Both the position numbers and the translations under genes were made by a program. Positions 10,577 through 16,547 of a stretch of 37,032 bases of DNA are shown piece by piece. The notes beneath the pieces were generated by a model, which saw nothing but the letters and a program-made list of their open reading frames with translations, searched no databases and had not been told where the DNA came from. Origin of the DNA: Deltaproteobacteria bacterium (GTDB lineage: Bacteria; Myxococcota_A; Bradymonadia; REDH01); NCBI GenBank assembly GCA_007693585.1, contig REDH01000189.1, positions 1 through 37,032 on the forward strand, given 5' to 3'. The stretch's first letter is position 1; every line of letters starts with the position of its first letter.

Positions 10577-10915
10577 ATGGCATCCTTCTACGACCGGCAC
10601 ATCTTCTGTTGCATCAACGAACGCGACTGCGAGCATCCGCGTGGCTGCTGCGGCCGCGAGCGGGGTGAGGCGATTCGGGCGCGGCTGGCTCAGGCCATCC
10701 GCCGCGAGCGGATTCCCGGCCGGCTTCGGGCGAACAAGGCGGGCTGCCTGGATCGCTGCGAGCTCGGCCCGTGCATCGTGATCTATCCGGATGCGGTGTG
10801 GTACCGGATCGAGGAGATCGAGCGGGACGTGGACGAGATTGTCCGCGAGCACCTGGTGGCCGGTCGCGTGGTCGATCGCCTGCGTCTCCCGGACGCGGAG
10901 GAGGGTGGTCCGTGA
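10577..10915 (+). CDS. Thioredoxin-like [2Fe-2S] ferredoxin
   Basis: A 112-residue protein of the thioredoxin-fold [2Fe-2S] ferredoxin family (Shethna-protein / Fd4-like). The cluster ligands are visible: HIFCCINERDC near residues 8-18, and KAGCLDRCELGPCIVIYPD in the middle, the C-x3-C pattern on the second loop. VWYRIEEIERDVDEIVREHL matches the conserved C-terminal helix. It carries electrons in the cytoplasm; its partner is not known. An extra CC and a second Cys pair (HPRGCCG) are present in the N-terminal loop. The stop overlaps the GTG start of the ChaN-like gene (GTGA at 10912-10915), so both are translated together. Confidence 0.9.
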   Translation: MASFYDRHIFCCINERDCEHPRGCCGRERGEAIRARLAQAIRRERIPGRLRANKAGCLDRCELGPCIVIYPDAVWYRIEEIERDVDEIVREHLVAGRVVDRLRLPDAEEGGP

Positions 10916-11919
10916 GGGCAGGCCGAGCGTTGATGGCGCTGTTCGCCGTGGCGGGTCTTGCTGCATCGTGTGCGGGTCCGGGTGCGGCGGCTGCGCCGGC
11001 CGCGGTTCCGTCGGGGCAGCCCGAGGAGGCCATCGCGGCGGCGATGGACGGGTTGGCCGAATTCGTCGCCGGGGAGAGCGGCGCGACCCTCGGCGCCCGG
11101 GATGTGGCGGAACGCATCGCTCGGGCGCGCGTGATCCACGTCGGAGAGCTTCACGGTCACCCGGAGATTCATGCCGTGCAGGCCGGGATCGTGGACGCCT
11201 TCCTCGACGCCGGAGTGCCGGTGGCGGTTGCGGTGGAGATGCTTCCGTGGACAATGCAGGATCACGCGGATCTCTGGGCGCGCGGCGAGGTGGACGAGGA
11301 GGAGTTCCTCACGCTGGTGGACTGGCCGCGGACCTGGGGACACGCCTTCGCCGCCTACCGTTCGTTGTTCGTTTCGGCGCGGCGCGAGGGTGCGTCGCTG
11401 CTGGCGATCAATGCCCCCCCGGGTCTGTCCCGGGACGTGTTCCGCCAGGGGATGGACGGGCTCTCTCCGGAGCGTCGCCGGCTGCTGCCGGCGGACGTGG
11501 ATCGCTCGGACGGCCCCTACCGCGAGGCTGTGATCGCAGCCCTCGGCATGCACGGTCACCTTCCGGAGGACGAGGACGAGCGAGCGGCCATCGAGGCGCG
11601 CTTCTTCGAGGCGCAGCTCGTGTGGGACGAGACGATGGCGGCCTCGATCGCCGATGCGCTCGAGAGCCTCCCGGGCACCGTGCGCATCGTGGTGGCCGCG
11701 GGGGCGATGCACGTTGCGGGAGGGGGAGGGATCCCGGACCGCGTGGCGCGCCGGGTTCCTTCGGTGCAGCAGGTCCGCATCGTCTGTCTGCCGCGGATGG
11801 AGGCGGCCAATCTCCAGGCGGCGGTCGCGCGCGCCCACCCGGGAGACATCGTGTGTCTTCCGCGGGGCGGGATGGATGGGGAGGCGCGGGGTGCCGGGGA
11901 GGATCAGGGCACCCGGTGA
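10912..11919 (+). CDS. ChaN-like haem-binding lipoprotein
   Basis: A 335-residue lipoprotein of the ChaN / DUF399 (cofactor haem-binding, Tiki-like) family. The signal sequence ends in a lipobox, GLAASC (about residue 20). The family signature GELHGHPEIHAVQ appears near residue 80, followed by VAVAVEMLPW, DWPRTWGHAFAAY and AINAPPGLSR, then VVAAGAMHVAGGGGIP near the C-terminus, which matches the conserved G-x-MH. Characterised members bind two haem groups between subunits and are Fur-regulated in some species. The start is GTG at 10912, overlapping the ferredoxin stop. Coupling to a ferredoxin suggests a role in iron or haem handling, but that is inference. Only 9 bases separate it from the convergent decarboxylase gene. 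Confidence 0.85.
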   Translation: MRAGRALMALFAVAGLAASCAGPGAAAAPAAVPSGQPEEAIAAAMDGLAEFVAGESGATLGARDVAERIARARVIHVGELHGHPEIHAVQAGIVDAFLDAGVPVAVAVEMLPWTMQDHADLWARGEVDEEEFLTLVDWPRTWGHAFAAYRSLFVSARREGASLLAINAPPGLSRDVFRQGMDGLSPERRRLLPADVDRSDGPYREAVIAALGMHGHLPEDEDERAAIEARFFEAQLVWDETMAASIADALESLPGTVRIVVAAGAMHVAGGGGIPDRVARRVPSVQQVRIVCLPRMEAANLQAAVARAHPGDIVCLPRGGMDGEARGAGEDQGTR

Positions 11920-11928
11920 GTTGCCGGC

Positions 11929-13188
11929 TCAGTCGAGCATGAGCTCGCGGGCGGGCTGCCGCATGCAGTGGAAGCTGGCCATGGACGACCCGTAGCCACC
12001 GGCGTTGAGCATCACGAGGAAGTCTCCTTCCTGGACGTCGGGCAGCCGTGCGTCTTCGTCGAAGTTGTCGATGACCTCGTTGATGTTTCCGACGACGAAG
12101 TAGTGATTGTCATCGGATCGGGCCGGTCCGCGGTGTGCGTGGATGATCTCCTGCACGAAGCCGTAGTGTGCGGCCTGGGGGTGGGCGTTGAATCCGACGT
12201 TGAGTCCGACGAAGGTTTCTCCGCCCTTCTCCTCGACCATGGTGACCTGGGCGACGAGGATGGAGGAGTCGTTGATGATGTAGTCGCCGGGTTCGCAGCA
12301 GATCTCGATGTGGTCTCCGAGCCGTTCTCGCACGACTTCGGCGATGGCGCTGGCGTAGAGGTCGAGGTCGACGGGCTGGTCGGTGGCGGCGTGCGGCACG
12401 CCGATTCCTCCGCCGACGTTGACGTAGGCGAGATCGGGGAGTTGCTCGGCGAAGTCGGCGAGTCTGCGCACGGCGCGCAGGAAGGTCTCCAGTCCGCGTG
12501 CGAGCCAGCCGGAGCCGACGTGCATGTGCACGCCCTCGACGATGAAGCCGTAGCCGCGGGCGACGTCGAGGGCCTCGTGGAAGCGGTCGGCGTAGATTCC
12601 GAACTTGCTGGGGCGGGAGCCTGCGTAGGTGAGGTTCCCGGAGAGCCCGACCCCGATCTGCGGATTGATGCGCAGCCCGATTCTGCGTCCGGGGAAGCGT
12701 CGTCCGAGCTTGTGCAGCATGCTGATGGAGTCGACGTTGATGCGGATGCCGAGTCCACCGATGCGCTCGATGTCGGCGTCGCTGACCGCGGAGGCGGTGA
12801 AGGAGATGTGTTCGGGTCGGAAGCCGTGCGCAAGGGCGAGTTCGACCTCTCCCGGCGATGCGCAGTCGATGCCGCAGCGGCGGGAGTCCCGCACGGCATC
12901 GAGGACGGGCCCGAACCGGTTGCTCTTGGTGGCGAAGTAGACGCGGTGGGGCTGTCCTGTGCCGGCAAGGGCGGCGGCGAGCCGGCCGATGTTGGCCTGG
13001 ATGCGTCTGCGGTCGTAGACGAGGAGGGGCGCACCGTGGTTCTCGGCGAGTTCTCGCACGCAGCGTTCTGCGAACCACAGGTCGTGGCCGCGGTAGTGGA
13101 GACGTTCGCGCTGCCACCACAGGTCGGTCGAGACCGGCCGTTCGGGTCGCAGGGTGCGGGCGTCGGGAACGACAAGAGTGTTCGTCAT
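11929..13188 (-). CDS. Fold-III PLP-dependent decarboxylase, atypical (LysA/ODC superfamily)
   Basis: A 419-residue alanine-racemase-fold decarboxylase. The barrel domain has FATKSN with the PLP-binding Lys 88, CASPGEVELAL, HVGSG (223-227), GGGIG (259-263) and EPGD (299-302). The C-terminal domain ends in GDFLVMLNAGGYGSSMAS. Two positions depart from diaminopimelate, ornithine and arginine decarboxylases. The EPGR phosphate/substrate motif reads EPGD, and the C-E-S-x-D (or C-D-x-x-D) motif with the catalytic Cys reads VGNINEVID (366-374), with no Cys. It is therefore unlikely to be ordinary LysA; the substrate is open. GGGAGGT precedes the ATG at 13186-13188, with a perfect hairpin directly above it. 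It is the only gene of its transcription unit in view. Confidence 0.85.
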   Translation of the reverse strand: MTNTLVVPDARTLRPERPVSTDLWWQRERLHYRGHDLWFAERCVRELAENHGAPLLVYDRRRIQANIGRLAAALAGTGQPHRVYFATKSNRFGPVLDAVRDSRRCGIDCASPGEVELALAHGFRPEHISFTASAVSDADIERIGGLGIRINVDSISMLHKLGRRFPGRRIGLRINPQIGVGLSGNLTYAGSRPSKFGIYADRFHEALDVARGYGFIVEGVHMHVGSGWLARGLETFLRAVRRLADFAEQLPDLAYVNVGGGIGVPHAATDQPVDLDLYASAIAEVVRERLGDHIEICCEPGDYIINDSSILVAQVTMVEEKGGETFVGLNVGFNAHPQAAHYGFVQEIIHAHRGPARSDDNHYFVVGNINEVIDNFDEDARLPDVQEGDFLVMLNAGGYGSSMASFHCMRQPARELMLD

Positions 13189-13198
13189 GGAACCTCCC

Positions 13199-13213
13199 GG
13201 CCCGAATCGGGCC
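13199..13213 (-). promoter_or_regulatory. Perfect hairpin next to the decarboxylase ribosome-binding site
   Basis: On the minus strand GGCCCGA, one unpaired base, TCGGGCC: seven-base arms, all G/C-rich. As RNA it would need a slightly longer loop, using about six pairs. It ends immediately before the GGGAGGT Shine-Dalgarno sequence, so a stable stem abuts the ribosome-binding site. This position could modulate translation or bind a regulator; there is no U-tract, so it is not an intrinsic terminator. Confidence 0.45.
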
Positions 13214-13351
13214 CAGCGATAGCCGGGGCTCGACCCCCCATCCTCCCTGGGGGCGCTATTCCGGACGGCGTAGAGGATGGACCGGGAACGATCCCCGGCC
13301 GCCCTGTCGCGGAATGTCGGGCGGCCTGAGCCGGCCCGACGAAGGGCAGGG

Positions 13352-13380
13352 CGTGTAGCACCCTCGCGTGGGCGGGGCAA
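13352..13380 (-). promoter_or_regulatory. Candidate promoter for the decarboxylase
   Basis: Minus strand: TTGCCC (13375-13380), a 17-base spacer, then TACACG (13352-13357). The -10 hexamer is identical to the one proposed for the HEAT-protein gene at 21155-21160. Transcription would start near 13345 and give a leader of about 157 bases. The -35 is weak (TTG only), so this is tentative. Confidence 0.35.
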
Positions 13381-13584
13381 GCGAAGCTGGAGGTCGGGGG
13401 CAAAAAACCGTCCATACGGGACATGGCGGGGCCATCCGGTGCGTGGAGACAAAGTGCGTGACGGGGGCCGGGGGGGACCGCTAGAAGGGGGGCGACCCGG
13501 GAACGGATCGCTGTGGCACGGCGGACCCGAGGGGTCGGTGGCGGAACGCCCCCCGCGGCGCGCATAGCATGGGAGCAGTTGAGA

Positions 13585-15165
13585 ATGGCGCAACCCCCGG
13601 CCAGTGGAGAGCACCTGCAGACCCCCCGGGACGAGTCCGCCGAGCGTGCGGTGCTGGGGGCGATCATGCTGCGACCGGATCTCCTTGCGGTGCTGGCCGA
13701 CCGGCTGAAGCCGCACGACTTCTATCTGGAGCAGCACCAGGTGATCTACACGGCGCTGCTCGACCTCGATGCGGCGCGGCTTCCGATCGACATGCTGCTG
13801 GTGAGCAAGCGGCTCAAGGAGCTGGATGCGCTCTCGGTGGCCGGGGGCGCCGCGTATCTGCTCGAGCTCGCGAACAGCGTGCCGACGACGCAGAACGCGG
13901 AGCGCTATGCTGCGATCATCCGGGAGAAGTCGATCCTGCGCGACGTCCAGGGCTTTGCGCGAGCGACGCTGCAGGAGGCGGGCACGGAGGTGGAGGATGT
14001 CCCGGGGTTCGTGGACACGGTGGCGCAGCGCGCGCTCCGCCTGTCGGTGTCGGGGAGCGGGCGCGGCGCGCGGATCCTCCGCGACGTGCTTCGACCCGCG
14101 GTCGAGCGGGCCCAGGAGCGTCACGAGGCGGGGCACAAGGGTTCGCTGACGGGGGTCACGAGCGGGTTCTTCGCGGTCGACCGGATGACGAACGGCTGGC
14201 AGCCCTCCGATCTGATCATTCTGGCGGCCCGTCCGGGCATGGGCAAGACGGCGTTCGCGCTGAACATGCTGCTCAACGCGGCGATGGATCGGCGCAACCC
14301 GACCCCGGGGGTCATCTTCAGCCTCGAGATGAGCGCGGAACAGCTCGCCACGCGCCTGTGGTGCTCGACGGCCCGGATCTCGATGGAGGATCTTCGGCGG
14401 GGCACCATCGAGCCCACGGGCTGGAATCGCCTGTTTCAGGCGGTGGAGCAGCTGGGTCGGGCGAAGGTGTTCATCGACGACACCCCGTCGCTCCCCATCA
14501 CCGAGATGATGCGCAAGTGTCGCCAGCTTCAGCACGAGCACCGCATCGGTCTGGTGATCGTCGACTATCTCCAGCTGATGACCGCAGGAGATGTGGGCCG
14601 GAACACGAGCCGCGAGCAGGTCATCTCCGAGATCTCCCGGAACCTCAAGGCGCTGGCCAAGGAGCTGAGCGTCCCGGTCATCGCGCTCTCCCAGTTGAAC
14701 CGTGGCGTGGAGAGCCGAACGGACAAGCGCCCGATGCTGTCGGATCTGCGCGAGTCCGGCGCCATCGAGCAGGACGCGGACATCATCACGTTCCTGTACC
14801 GCGAGGACTACTACGCCCGGAAGAAGGAGGGGGAGGAGGACGAGGAGCAGATCCGCCCCACGAACGCCCCCGGCCTGACCGAGGTCATCATTTCCAAGCA
14901 CCGGTCGGGTTCCACCGGCACGGTGGAGCTCGAGTTCCACGGCCAGTACACCCTCTTCACCAACCTCCGGCGCGACGAGGACGCCGGCGATCCGGGTGCT
15001 CCCCTCCCGCAGGATCTCCGGCCGCCGGCCCCGCTGGACGAGGGCCCCGCCTTCGCCGCGCCGCCGCCCGATCCCGACGGCACCCGGCCCCCGGTGCGGG
15101 TGGAAGAGCGCCCGTTCGTCGCCGCGGACACCGGCGACGACGGGGATGACGACCTCCCGATCTGA
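13585..15165 (+). CDS. dnaB: Replicative DNA helicase DnaB
   Basis: A 526-residue hexameric 5'-3' helicase that unwinds DNA at the replication fork. The N-terminal primase-interacting domain is at about 15-115 (AERAVLGAIMLRPDLL, FYLEQHQVIYTALLDL). A linker precedes the RecA-like ATPase domain. Walker A is ARPGMGKTA (215-223) and Walker B is LVIVDYLQLM. The later conserved segments LSQLNRGVESRTDKRP, SDLRESGAIEQDADII and ISKHRSGSTGTVEL are complete. The C-terminal 60 residues are acidic and Pro-rich and extend beyond the usual end of the family. The ATG at 13585 fits the family start; an in-frame TTG lies two codons upstream. It converges on rarA with 47 bases between stops. No intein is visible. 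Confidence 0.97.
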   Translation: MAQPPASGEHLQTPRDESAERAVLGAIMLRPDLLAVLADRLKPHDFYLEQHQVIYTALLDLDAARLPIDMLLVSKRLKELDALSVAGGAAYLLELANSVPTTQNAERYAAIIREKSILRDVQGFARATLQEAGTEVEDVPGFVDTVAQRALRLSVSGSGRGARILRDVLRPAVERAQERHEAGHKGSLTGVTSGFFAVDRMTNGWQPSDLIILAARPGMGKTAFALNMLLNAAMDRRNPTPGVIFSLEMSAEQLATRLWCSTARISMEDLRRGTIEPTGWNRLFQAVEQLGRAKVFIDDTPSLPITEMMRKCRQLQHEHRIGLVIVDYLQLMTAGDVGRNTSREQVISEISRNLKALAKELSVPVIALSQLNRGVESRTDKRPMLSDLRESGAIEQDADIITFLYREDYYARKKEGEEDEEQIRPTNAPGLTEVIISKHRSGSTGTVELEFHGQYTLFTNLRRDEDAGDPGAPLPQDLRPPAPLDEGPAFAAPPPDPDGTRPPVRVEERPFVAADTGDDGDDDLPI

Positions 15166-15212
15166 CGGGTGGCTCCGCCGATCCGACGCGCCGTCCTGCG
15201 CGGCGGCCAACC

Positions 15213-16547
15213 TCAGCCCTCCGTCGCGCTGCCCCGGTCGCGCCAGCGGGCCAGCCGCTCGGCGATCTCCCGCTCCAGTCCGGACGAAGAGGGTTCGTAG
15301 TAGCGACGACCCCGCAGCCGGTCCGGCAGGTACTCCTCGACCACGTAGTGTCCGTCGAAGTTGTGGGGATACCGGTACCCGCGCCCGTACCCCATCTGCT
15401 TCATCATCCCCGTGGACGCGTTCACGAGGTGACGCGGCACCGGCAGGTTGCCGTGCTCCAGGACATCCTTGCGCGCGCGACCGTAGGCCATGAGGACGCT
15501 GTTGCTCTTCGGCGCCGTGGCGAGATAGGTCGCCGCCTGTGTCATCGGCAGCACCCCCTCGGGCAGGCCGACGAAGCGGAAGGCCTCGGTGGCCGAGGTC
15601 GCGACCTGCAGGGCGCGGGGATCCGCGTTGCCGATGTCCTCGGAGGCGAAGATCACCATGCGACGCAGGATGAACAGCGGGTCCTCTCCGGCCTCGAGCA
15701 TGCGGACCATGTAGAAGAGCGCCGCGTCGGGGTCGCTGCCGCGCAGGCTCTTGATGAACGCCGAGACCACCTGGTAGTGCGCATCCCCCGCCTTGTCGTA
15801 GAGCAGCGTCTTCTTCTGGAGCGCCTCCTCCACGACCGCAGGCGTGATGAGTCCCGGCGTGCCCGCCGGAGCGGCATGGGCGGCGAGGTCCGCTGCCACC
15901 TCCAGCGTATTGAGCAGACTGCGCGCGTCCCCGTCGGCGGAGGCCACCAGCGCGCGCCGCGCCTCCGGGTCGAGGTCCGGCGGTGTGGGACCGAGCCCGC
16001 GCTCCGGATCGTCGAAGGTGCGCTGGAGGAGCGCATCGAGGTGGTCCGGGCCGAGCGGCCGAAGCTGCAGCACCCGCGTGCGCGACAGCAGCGCGGCGTT
16101 CACCTCGAAGCTGGGGTTCTCCGTGGTTGCGCCCACGAGGGTGATGGTGCCCCGTTCCACGTGAGGCAGCAGCGCATCCTGCTGGCTCTTGCTGAACCGA
16201 TGGATCTCGTCGATGAACAGCAGGGTGGAGCGCTGCTCCATCGAGCCGCGAAGCCGCGCACCATCGACGGCCTCGCGCACCTGCTTCACGCCGCCGAGCA
16301 CCGCGGACAGCGGCACGAACGTGGCCCCGACCGCTTCGGCATAGAGCCGCGCCAGGGTCGTCTTCCCCGTACCCGGCGGCCCCCACAGCACGAGCGAGCG
16401 CAGCGCGCCCCGCTCGATCAGGCCCCGAAGGAAGCGACCGGACCCGAGCAGGTGCTCCTGCCCCAGGTACTCGTCCAGCGTCCGCGGGCGCATCCGCTCC
16501 GCGAGGGGCACCCACTCTCCCGGCTTGCGCTCCTCGCGGTCGTGCAC
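15213..16547 (-). CDS. rarA: RarA/MgsA-type AAA+ replication-recombination ATPase
   Basis: A 444-residue clamp-loader-like AAA+ protein (MgsA/RarA, WRNIP1 homologue) acting at stalled replication forks. Near the N-terminus is the conserved PLAERMRPRTLDEYLGQEHL. Walker A is GPPGTGKT (about 56-63), Walker B is LLFIDEIHRF followed by SKSQQDALLPHVE, and sensor 1 is GATTENPSFEVN. The C-terminal MgsA domain has DPDAALFYMVRMLEAGEDP, FASEDIGNADP and PHNFDGHYVVEEYLP. GGAGGT at 16554-16559 sits six bases before the GTG at 16545-16547, which I chose; another GTG one codon upstream would leave only three bases. It converges on dnaB and diverges from the phosphoesterase gene 48 bases away. Confidence 0.95.
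   Translation of the reverse strand: MHDREERKPGEWVPLAERMRPRTLDEYLGQEHLLGSGRFLRGLIERGALRSLVLWGPPGTGKTTLARLYAEAVGATFVPLSAVLGGVKQVREAVDGARLRGSMEQRSTLLFIDEIHRFSKSQQDALLPHVERGTITLVGATTENPSFEVNAALLSRTRVLQLRPLGPDHLDALLQRTFDDPERGLGPTPPDLDPEARRALVASADGDARSLLNTLEVAADLAAHAAPAGTPGLITPAVVEEALQKKTLLYDKAGDAHYQVVSAFIKSLRGSDPDAALFYMVRMLEAGEDPLFILRRMVIFASEDIGNADPRALQVATSATEAFRFVGLPEGVLPMTQAATYLATAPKSNSVLMAYGRARKDVLEHGNLPVPRHLVNASTGMMKQMGYGRGYRYPHNFDGHYVVEEYLPDRLRGRRYYEPSSSGLEREIAERLARWRDRGSATEG

What the first reader, a model, noticed from the sequence alone, without database searches (positions are those of the whole stretch)
11929..13188. PLP decarboxylase lacking the catalytic Cys motif and the EPGR arginine
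The protein has the complete fold-III decarboxylase scaffold: PLP Lys in FATKSN, HVGSG, a GGG loop and a GGYGSSM C-terminal strand. But the C-E-S-x-D / C-D-x-x-D segment that supplies the catalytic Cys and the substrate-end acid in diaminopimelate, ornithine and arginine decarboxylases reads VGNINEVID, and EPGR reads EPGD. Both changes sit at positions that set substrate and phosphate binding, while the frame and composition look healthy. I infer a decarboxylase (or racemase-like enzyme) with a different substrate, possibly part of an unknown polyamine or amino-acid route.
Basis: partly seen in the sequence, partly recalled or inferred. Interest (0 to 1): 0.6.

Follow-up and report, generated by a model that had tools for sequence, protein, structure and literature searches.

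The report
Cysteine-free decarboxylase related to BurI
This bacterial gene encodes an intact vitamin-B6 enzyme from a widespread family whose best-understood branch makes building blocks of the sulfur compound DMSP; the family has replaced a cysteine thought to be universal in such decarboxylases, and this member lacks the usual partner genes, so its exact substrate is unknown.

Summary
The gene is real: complement(11929..13188), 419 aa, good start site, coding composition, confident fold-III decarboxylase model. The motifs are as read: GNINE replaces G-P-x-C-E-S and EPGD replaces EPGR. But only the Cys is lost (C to N370); the substrate-end Glu (E371) and Asp (D374) remain. YN has also become HC. 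These changes are fixed across 96 homologues that form one clade (100%) apart from diaminopimelate decarboxylases (DAPDCs). The genome has a separate LysA. Of 79 scanned family loci, 58 carry an adjacent same-strand SET gene matching BurB (methionine S-methyltransferase; TM 0.89-0.95 to its crystal structure); two plasmid relatives sit beside MmtN-type genes; five loci add an aminotransferase and mostly an aldehyde dehydrogenase. That is the S-methylmethionine (SMM) to DMSP route, so that subclade is BurI/SMMDC-type SMM decarboxylase. Charge reversal at the two DAPDC arginines that hold the distal carboxylate fits a cationic sulfonium substrate. The window protein lies in a sister clade (Lujinxingia-type genomes) with Gln/Gly where the DMSP branch has Glu, and with no BurB in any of nine genomes. 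Best reading: a working decarboxylase for an amino acid with a cationic side chain, SMM or similar; substrate unproven. Known superfamily, new variant.

The parts
11929..13188 (-). fold-III PLP decarboxylase of the N-x-N-E / EPGD / HC family (419 aa)
   Evidence: Pfam Orn_Arg_deC_N 7e-38 and Orn_DAP_Arg_deC 8e-13; AlphaFold2 pLDDT 90.9; relatives at 39-73% identity
13193..13198 (-). Shine-Dalgarno-like GGGAGG, 4 nt before the ATG at 13188
   Evidence: read from sequence
12925..12927 (-). Lys88 (FATKSN), PLP Schiff-base lysine
   Evidence: invariant in A1 and A3
12283..12294 (-). E299-P-G-D302: EPGR Arg replaced by Asp
   Evidence: EPG[D/E/T] in the family against EPGR in all 17 DAPDCs compared
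12175..12177 (-). Gln338, equivalent of the second carboxylate-binding Arg of DAPDC (RPxLY); Glu in all methyltransferase-linked relatives of the main branch
   Evidence: PMC8277567
12076..12090 (-). G-N-I-N370-E371: catalytic Cys replaced by Asn, distal Glu kept
11965..11970 (-). His407-Cys408, replacing the Tyr-Asn of DAPDC (phosphate-binding Tyr)

Best explanation
The gene encodes an active, homodimeric fold-III PLP decarboxylase of the superfamily whose best-understood branch is the S-methylmethionine decarboxylase of DMSP synthesis (BurI/SMMDC). The substrate's alpha-amine forms an aldimine with PLP on Lys88; the alpha-carboxylate is lost as CO2; the positively charged end of the side chain is held by Asp302 and by Glu371 from the partner subunit, in the pocket where DAPDC uses two arginines to hold a carboxylate. 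A proton donor other than the usual Cys (His407, Cys408 or Lys88) completes the amine. In the sister branch the substrate is SMM; for the window branch SMM taken up or made by an unrecognised enzyme is a leading candidate (about 0.35), another cationic amino acid (Lys, Orn, Arg or an N-methyl form) about equally likely. Shown: predicted fold, residue switch, clade, partner genes of the sister branch, absence of partners here. Inferred: catalysis, charge of the substrate, identity of the substrate, proton donor.
For: PLP-site residues (K88, H221, H223, GGG259-261, E299) invariant in 42 diverse members. N-family monophyletic at 100% against DAPDC; window clade inside it at 99%. 58 of 79 loci of the family carry an adjacent same-strand SET gene (spacing mostly -56 to +86 bp; fused in two) that is BurB-like: 201 bits, E 7e-59 to PDB 9l4t, Foldseek TM 0.89/0.95, 49% identity to the BurB-SMM-SAM complex. 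BurB makes SMM and a burI mutant accumulates SMM (PMC7496086). L146 sits beside a methyltransferase with 355 bits to 7vvv, deposited as MmtN (PMC9135737); L145's is its relative. Desulfopila and Desulforhopalus loci read methyltransferase-metK-decarboxylase-BurB-class III aminotransferase; Desulfopila, both Thiorhodococcus and Desulfobulbus rhabdoformis also carry aminobutyraldehyde dehydrogenase. Arg249/Arg285 of DAPDC bind the distal carboxylate and Glu315 the distal amine (PMC8277567): here D302, Q338 (Glu in the SMM branch) and E371. Own genome has a separate aspartokinase-DAPDC type LysA (L002).
Against: The window genome and all eight other window-clade genomes lack BurB (the same search finds it in G006, G011, G041); the window genome lacks MmtN and over-cut-off aminotransferase and aldehyde dehydrogenase partners. 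Residue 338 is Gln, not Glu. The gene stands alone between a convergent ChaN-like gene and a divergent dnaB. BurI and SMMDC sequences themselves were not in hand; they enter the tree only through proxies next to BurB or MmtN. The structure is a monomer model without ligand. The genome is in 223 contigs (97.7% complete), so a partner could be missing from it.
Confidence: 0.7

Rival explanations
1. The window enzyme is itself an S-methylmethionine decarboxylase that uses SMM taken up from plants or algae, making DMSP-amine without the rest of the DMSP operon.
For: Same residue switch as the BurB/MmtN-linked branch; loss of burD and burE is tolerated in B. thailandensis, so partners can be replaced by housekeeping enzymes (PMC7496086).
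Against: No methionine S-methyltransferase of the BurB or MmtN type in the genome; Glu338, present in all 58 SET-linked members, is Gln or Gly in the whole window clade; clade is separated from the SMM branch.
Confidence: 0.35
2. It decarboxylates a different cationic amino acid (L- or D-lysine, ornithine, arginine or an N-methylated form) for a lineage-specific route.
For: D302 and E371 are predicted to form an acidic pocket; several sister clades without methyltransferase neighbours differ at residue 338 (A, S, L, M, G, Q).
Against: No polyamine gene nearby and no SpeD or spermidine synthase family hit in the genome; no aminotransferase or dehydrogenase neighbour.
Confidence: 0.35
3. Because the Cys is missing, the enzyme performs decarboxylation-dependent transamination, giving an aldehyde and PMP rather than an amine.
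For: The Cys to Ser variant of D-ornithine/D-lysine decarboxylase is crystallised with PMP and 4-guanidinobutanal (9cpz).
Against: In the sister branch the operons carry a separate aminotransferase, and the published pathway passes through an amine (PMC12542666), so Asn there is compatible with amine formation.
Confidence: 0.12
4. Divergent LysA (DAPDC).
For: Best PDB matches by sequence and fold are DAPDCs.
Against: 234.8 bits against a lysA cut-off of 297.9; both carboxylate-binding Arg lost; outside the DAPDC clade; the genome has another LysA (L002).
Confidence: 0.03
5. A pseudoenzyme, like antizyme inhibitor among the ODC relatives.
For: The phosphate-side Tyr and the EPGR Arg are both replaced.
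Against: PLP Lys, His, GGG loop and Glu are invariant in 42 diverse members, and the related operons need the reaction.
Confidence: 0.04

Closest known systems
BurI (Burkholderia thailandensis) / SMMDC (Streptomyces mobaraensis), S-methylmethionine decarboxylases of DMSP synthesis
   Same: By proxy (relatives beside BurB or MmtN: L144, L145, L146 and 58 further loci): same fold, same N-x-N-E, EPG[DET] and HC signature, about 39-46% identity
   Different: Window clade lies outside that branch, has Gln338 instead of Glu and no methionine S-methyltransferase in its genome; BurI/SMMDC sequences themselves not compared
Diaminopimelate decarboxylase LysA (1knw/1ko0, 3c5q, 2p3e)
   Same: Fold, PLP site, Glu and Asp of the CESxD segment; best PDB match, 25-33% identity, TM about 0.8
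   Different: Cys to Asn, EPGR to EPGD, RPxLY Arg to Gln, YN to HC; separate clade
D-ornithine/D-lysine decarboxylase DokD (9cpz, 6n2h)
   Same: Fold-III relative acting on amino acids with a distal cation
   Different: Has the catalytic Cys387; 22-23% identity; 81.7 bits against a cut-off of 700
BtrK, SbnH, FigC (clade 2 of PMC7857480)
   Same: Specialised-metabolism fold-III decarboxylases
   Different: Said to keep the Cys (PMC7857480); much weaker matches (80 and 59 bits with the protein; FigC 69 bits with the profile)

Membership tests
BurI/SMMDC S-methylmethionine decarboxylase | active-site signature shared with the BurB/MmtN-linked branch (N-x-N-E, EPG[DET], HC) | tested here: met
BurI/SMMDC S-methylmethionine decarboxylase | Glu at position 338 | tested here: not met
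   Gln338; Glu in 58 of 58 SET-linked members
BurI/SMMDC S-methylmethionine decarboxylase | placed inside the methyltransferase-linked branch | tested here: not met
   separate clade of 6 rows, 99%
BurI/SMMDC S-methylmethionine decarboxylase | linked methionine S-methyltransferase (BurB or MmtN) | tested here: not met
   none in own genome; BurB absent in nine window-clade genomes
BurI/SMMDC S-methylmethionine decarboxylase | direct sequence comparison with BurI or SMMDC | not tested
   the sequences were not obtained
BurI/SMMDC S-methylmethionine decarboxylase | SMM decarboxylase activity | not testable with these tools
   needs assay
LysA / DAPDC | NCBIfam lysA equivalog cut-off | tested here: not met
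   234.8 against 297.9 bits
LysA / DAPDC | CES motif and two distal-carboxylate arginines (EPGR, RPxLY) | tested here: not met
   NEV, EPGD, Q338
LysA / DAPDC | clade | tested here: not met
   DAPDC rows 100% separate
Fold-III PLP decarboxylase (Orn_Arg_deC) | both Pfam domains over cut-off, PLP Lys, His, GGG, Glu | tested here: met
Ornithine/arginine decarboxylase | NCBIfam cut-off (speA, DokD), polyamine context | tested here: not met

The most novel reading that the evidence does not exclude
The window clade (Lujinxingia and relatives) is a new decarboxylase with its own cationic substrate, and the whole N-x-N-E superfamily decarboxylates by a Cys-free mechanism in which Asn, with the new His-Cys pair, replaces the Cys described as conserved in all fold-III decarboxylases.
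Probability: 0.35. Interest if true: 0.6.

Novelty: new variant of a known kind. Interest (0 to 1): 0.45.

Why it matters
PMC7857480 describes the active-site Cys as conserved in all fold-III PLP decarboxylases; a large, evidently functional family without it makes the role of that residue directly testable. The same signature (GNINE, EPGD, HC) marks candidate SMM decarboxylases, which annotation pipelines name diaminopimelate decarboxylase, and pairs them with BurB in five phyla including sulfate reducers, purple sulfur bacteria and sphingomonads, although a 2022 paper placed BurB only in some Burkholderia (PMC9135737). The window clade is an orphan branch whose substrate, if not SMM, would be a new activity.

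Tried and rejected
First idea, from the SET neighbour: lysine trimethylation followed by decarboxylation to valerobetaine; dropped when the SET profile hit BurB in the PDB and the operon matched the published DMSP route. Fold-III SAM decarboxylase feeding spermidine: no SpeD but also no spermidine synthase in the genome, so no support. Genome-contig scan with the single protein found nothing; the alignment query did. Neighbours of the non-linked clades (aconitase B, FTCD, SLT/LysM, NamZ, T2SSF, Cu monooxygenase, NUDIX-metallo-beta-lactamase, YceI) show no shared pathway. No Rfam hit or tRNA near the gene. The long minus-strand frame 11929-16515 is an antisense extension over dnaB, not a fusion.

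Full report
The gene. The finding's coordinates hold a complete minus-strand gene, complement(11929..13188), 419 codons, ATG start with GGGAGG 4 nt upstream, codon-position GC 0.69/0.44/0.86. It is flanked by a convergent ChaN-like gene (10771..11919, plus strand; 9 bp from stop to stop) and a divergent dnaB (13513..15165, plus), so it appears monocistronic. The host genome is a 5 Mb, 223-contig assembly (97.7% complete) whose relatives include Lujinxingia.

What the motifs say. Pfam gives both fold-III decarboxylase domains; NCBIfam gives lysA as best but well below cut-off. Against E. coli, H. pylori and Aquifex DAPDC the alignment is gap-free through the segment in question: the Cys becomes Asn370, the following Glu is kept (E371) and so is the Asp (D374). 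PMC8277567 assigns the DAPDC residues: Arg249 (of EPGR) and Arg285 hold the distal carboxylate, Glu315 the distal amine, Tyr343 and Ser182 the PLP phosphate. Here the equivalents are Asp302, Gln338, Glu371 and His407. PMC7857480 states that the Cys is conserved in all fold-III decarboxylases.

The family. A profile scan found 255 relatives, 80 of them fetched. The 79 that cover the active site carry the signature EPG[DET], G[NH][IL]NE, HC; no DAPDC does. In 96 members N370, H407 and C408 are 100% fixed, against C, Y and N in DAPDC. The tree separates the family from DAPDC at 100% and shows five parts: a Myxococcota EPGT clade, the window clade (window, its g2 relatives, Lujinxingia), a Chloroflexota/Acidobacteriota clade, a small clade of Desulfobacterales and gammaproteobacteria, and a large branch.

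The large branch has a function. 58 of 79 scanned family loci have a same-strand SET gene next to the decarboxylase, overlapping by up to 56 bp or within about 90 bp upstream, downstream in five, fused in L050 and L085. The SET profile matches BurB (PDB 9l4t, 9l4v) at 201 bits, far above any histone methyltransferase, and the model superposes on the BurB-SMM-SAM complex at TM 0.89/0.95, 49% identity. BurB converts Met to SMM in vitro and a burI mutant accumulates SMM (PMC7496086); PMC12542666 names BurI/SMMDC, BurD and BurE as the downstream enzymes. In L145 and L146 a class I methyltransferase takes that place; L146's matches MmtN (7vvv, 355 bits) and L145's is 50% identical to it over 212 residues. 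L074 and L077 have another class I methyltransferase adjacent, L090 and L111 have one fused, L042 has a HemK-like one. Desulfopila and Desulforhopalus add a further methyltransferase and metK; five loci add an aminotransferase (PRK07036 family) and four of these an intact aminobutyraldehyde dehydrogenase. This is the published Met-SMM-amine-aldehyde-DMSP order. I infer that the large branch is SMM decarboxylase; BurI and SMMDC sequences themselves were not compared.

A residue tracks the partner. Glu338 (DAPDC Arg285) is present in all 58 SET-linked members and in the class I-linked ones, and in none of the 15 non-linked loci outside that branch nor in the window (63/1 against 0/16, Fisher 6e-16). 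Most of this is one event on the tree, so the number overstates the evidence.

The window branch. BurB is found at high score in three genomes of the class (G006, G011, G041), exactly those with the SET-linked decarboxylase, and in none of the nine genomes with the window-type enzyme. The window genome also has no MmtN, no SpeD, no spermidine synthase, and no over-cut-off aminotransferase or aldehyde dehydrogenase of the DMSP type. It has its own aspartokinase-DAPDC type LysA (L002). The window enzyme therefore works like a BurI-type decarboxylase but is not filed as SMMDC: three tested features fail. The model is confident (pLDDT 90.9), with DAPDC as nearest solved fold.

Mechanism. External aldimine on Lys88, loss of CO2, distal cation held by Asp302 and Glu371 (inferred). 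Since the C to S variant of DokD is seen with PMP plus aldehyde (9cpz), either the family has a new proton donor or the window clade may transaminate; the separate aminotransferase in the DMSP operons argues for amine formation in that branch.

Verdict. Real, conserved, functional-looking, outside LysA and ODC; a divergent, partnerless branch of the BurI/SMMDC superfamily. New variant of a known kind.

Noticed in passing
L040-L112 (58 loci; e.g. L056, L068, L072, L096, L043, L048, L050, L092): BurB-type SET genes sit next to the decarboxylase in Pseudomonadota, Thermodesulfobacteriota, Myxococcota, Planctomycetota and Chloroflexota, although PMC9135737 (2022) placed BurB only in some Burkholderia; these are candidate new DMSP producers.
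   Followed up: partly
L072:7871-14680, L084:7495-13215: Compact operon methyltransferase-metK-decarboxylase-BurB-aminotransferase in sulfate reducers, followed by an aminobutyraldehyde dehydrogenase in L072; in L084 only a short dehydrogenase fragment was recognised.
   Followed up: partly
L143, L058, L067, L070, L103 (upstream 10 kb): In sphingomonads and relatives the BurB-decarboxylase pair closes a cluster with PP2C/SpoIIE phosphatase, anti-sigma-like ATPase and STAS genes: a partner-switching regulatory setting.
   Followed up: no
L144 (NZ_CP106953.1, Eleftheria terrae plasmid, 181-214 kb): A bur-like NRPS/PKS cluster with BurB, the decarboxylase, FkbH, aminotransferase, aminobutyraldehyde dehydrogenase and TauD.
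   Followed up: no
L090:9746-11899, L111 from 10001, L074:10422-11174, L077:10958-11659: Decarboxylases fused or adjacent to a class I methyltransferase with only weak PDB matches: candidate further type of methionine S-methyltransferase.
   Followed up: partly
L147:7953-8411 (Rhizobium bangladeshense plasmid p7): A BurB-like SET gene between asparagine synthase-like and S-adenosylmethionine decarboxylase genes on a plasmid with ParB and RuvC-like genes.
   Followed up: no
L148:2961-3443: A divergent SET gene directly downstream of a decarboxylase of the distant EPGT clade (Myxococcota), suggesting the pairing may be older than the main branch.
   Followed up: no
L073: Record titled Klebsiella pneumoniae MAG whose decarboxylase groups with uncultured gammaproteobacteria; the label looks doubtful.
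   Followed up: no
window 11929-16515 (-): 1528-codon open frame antisense to dnaB, a by-product of 70% GC.
   Followed up: yes
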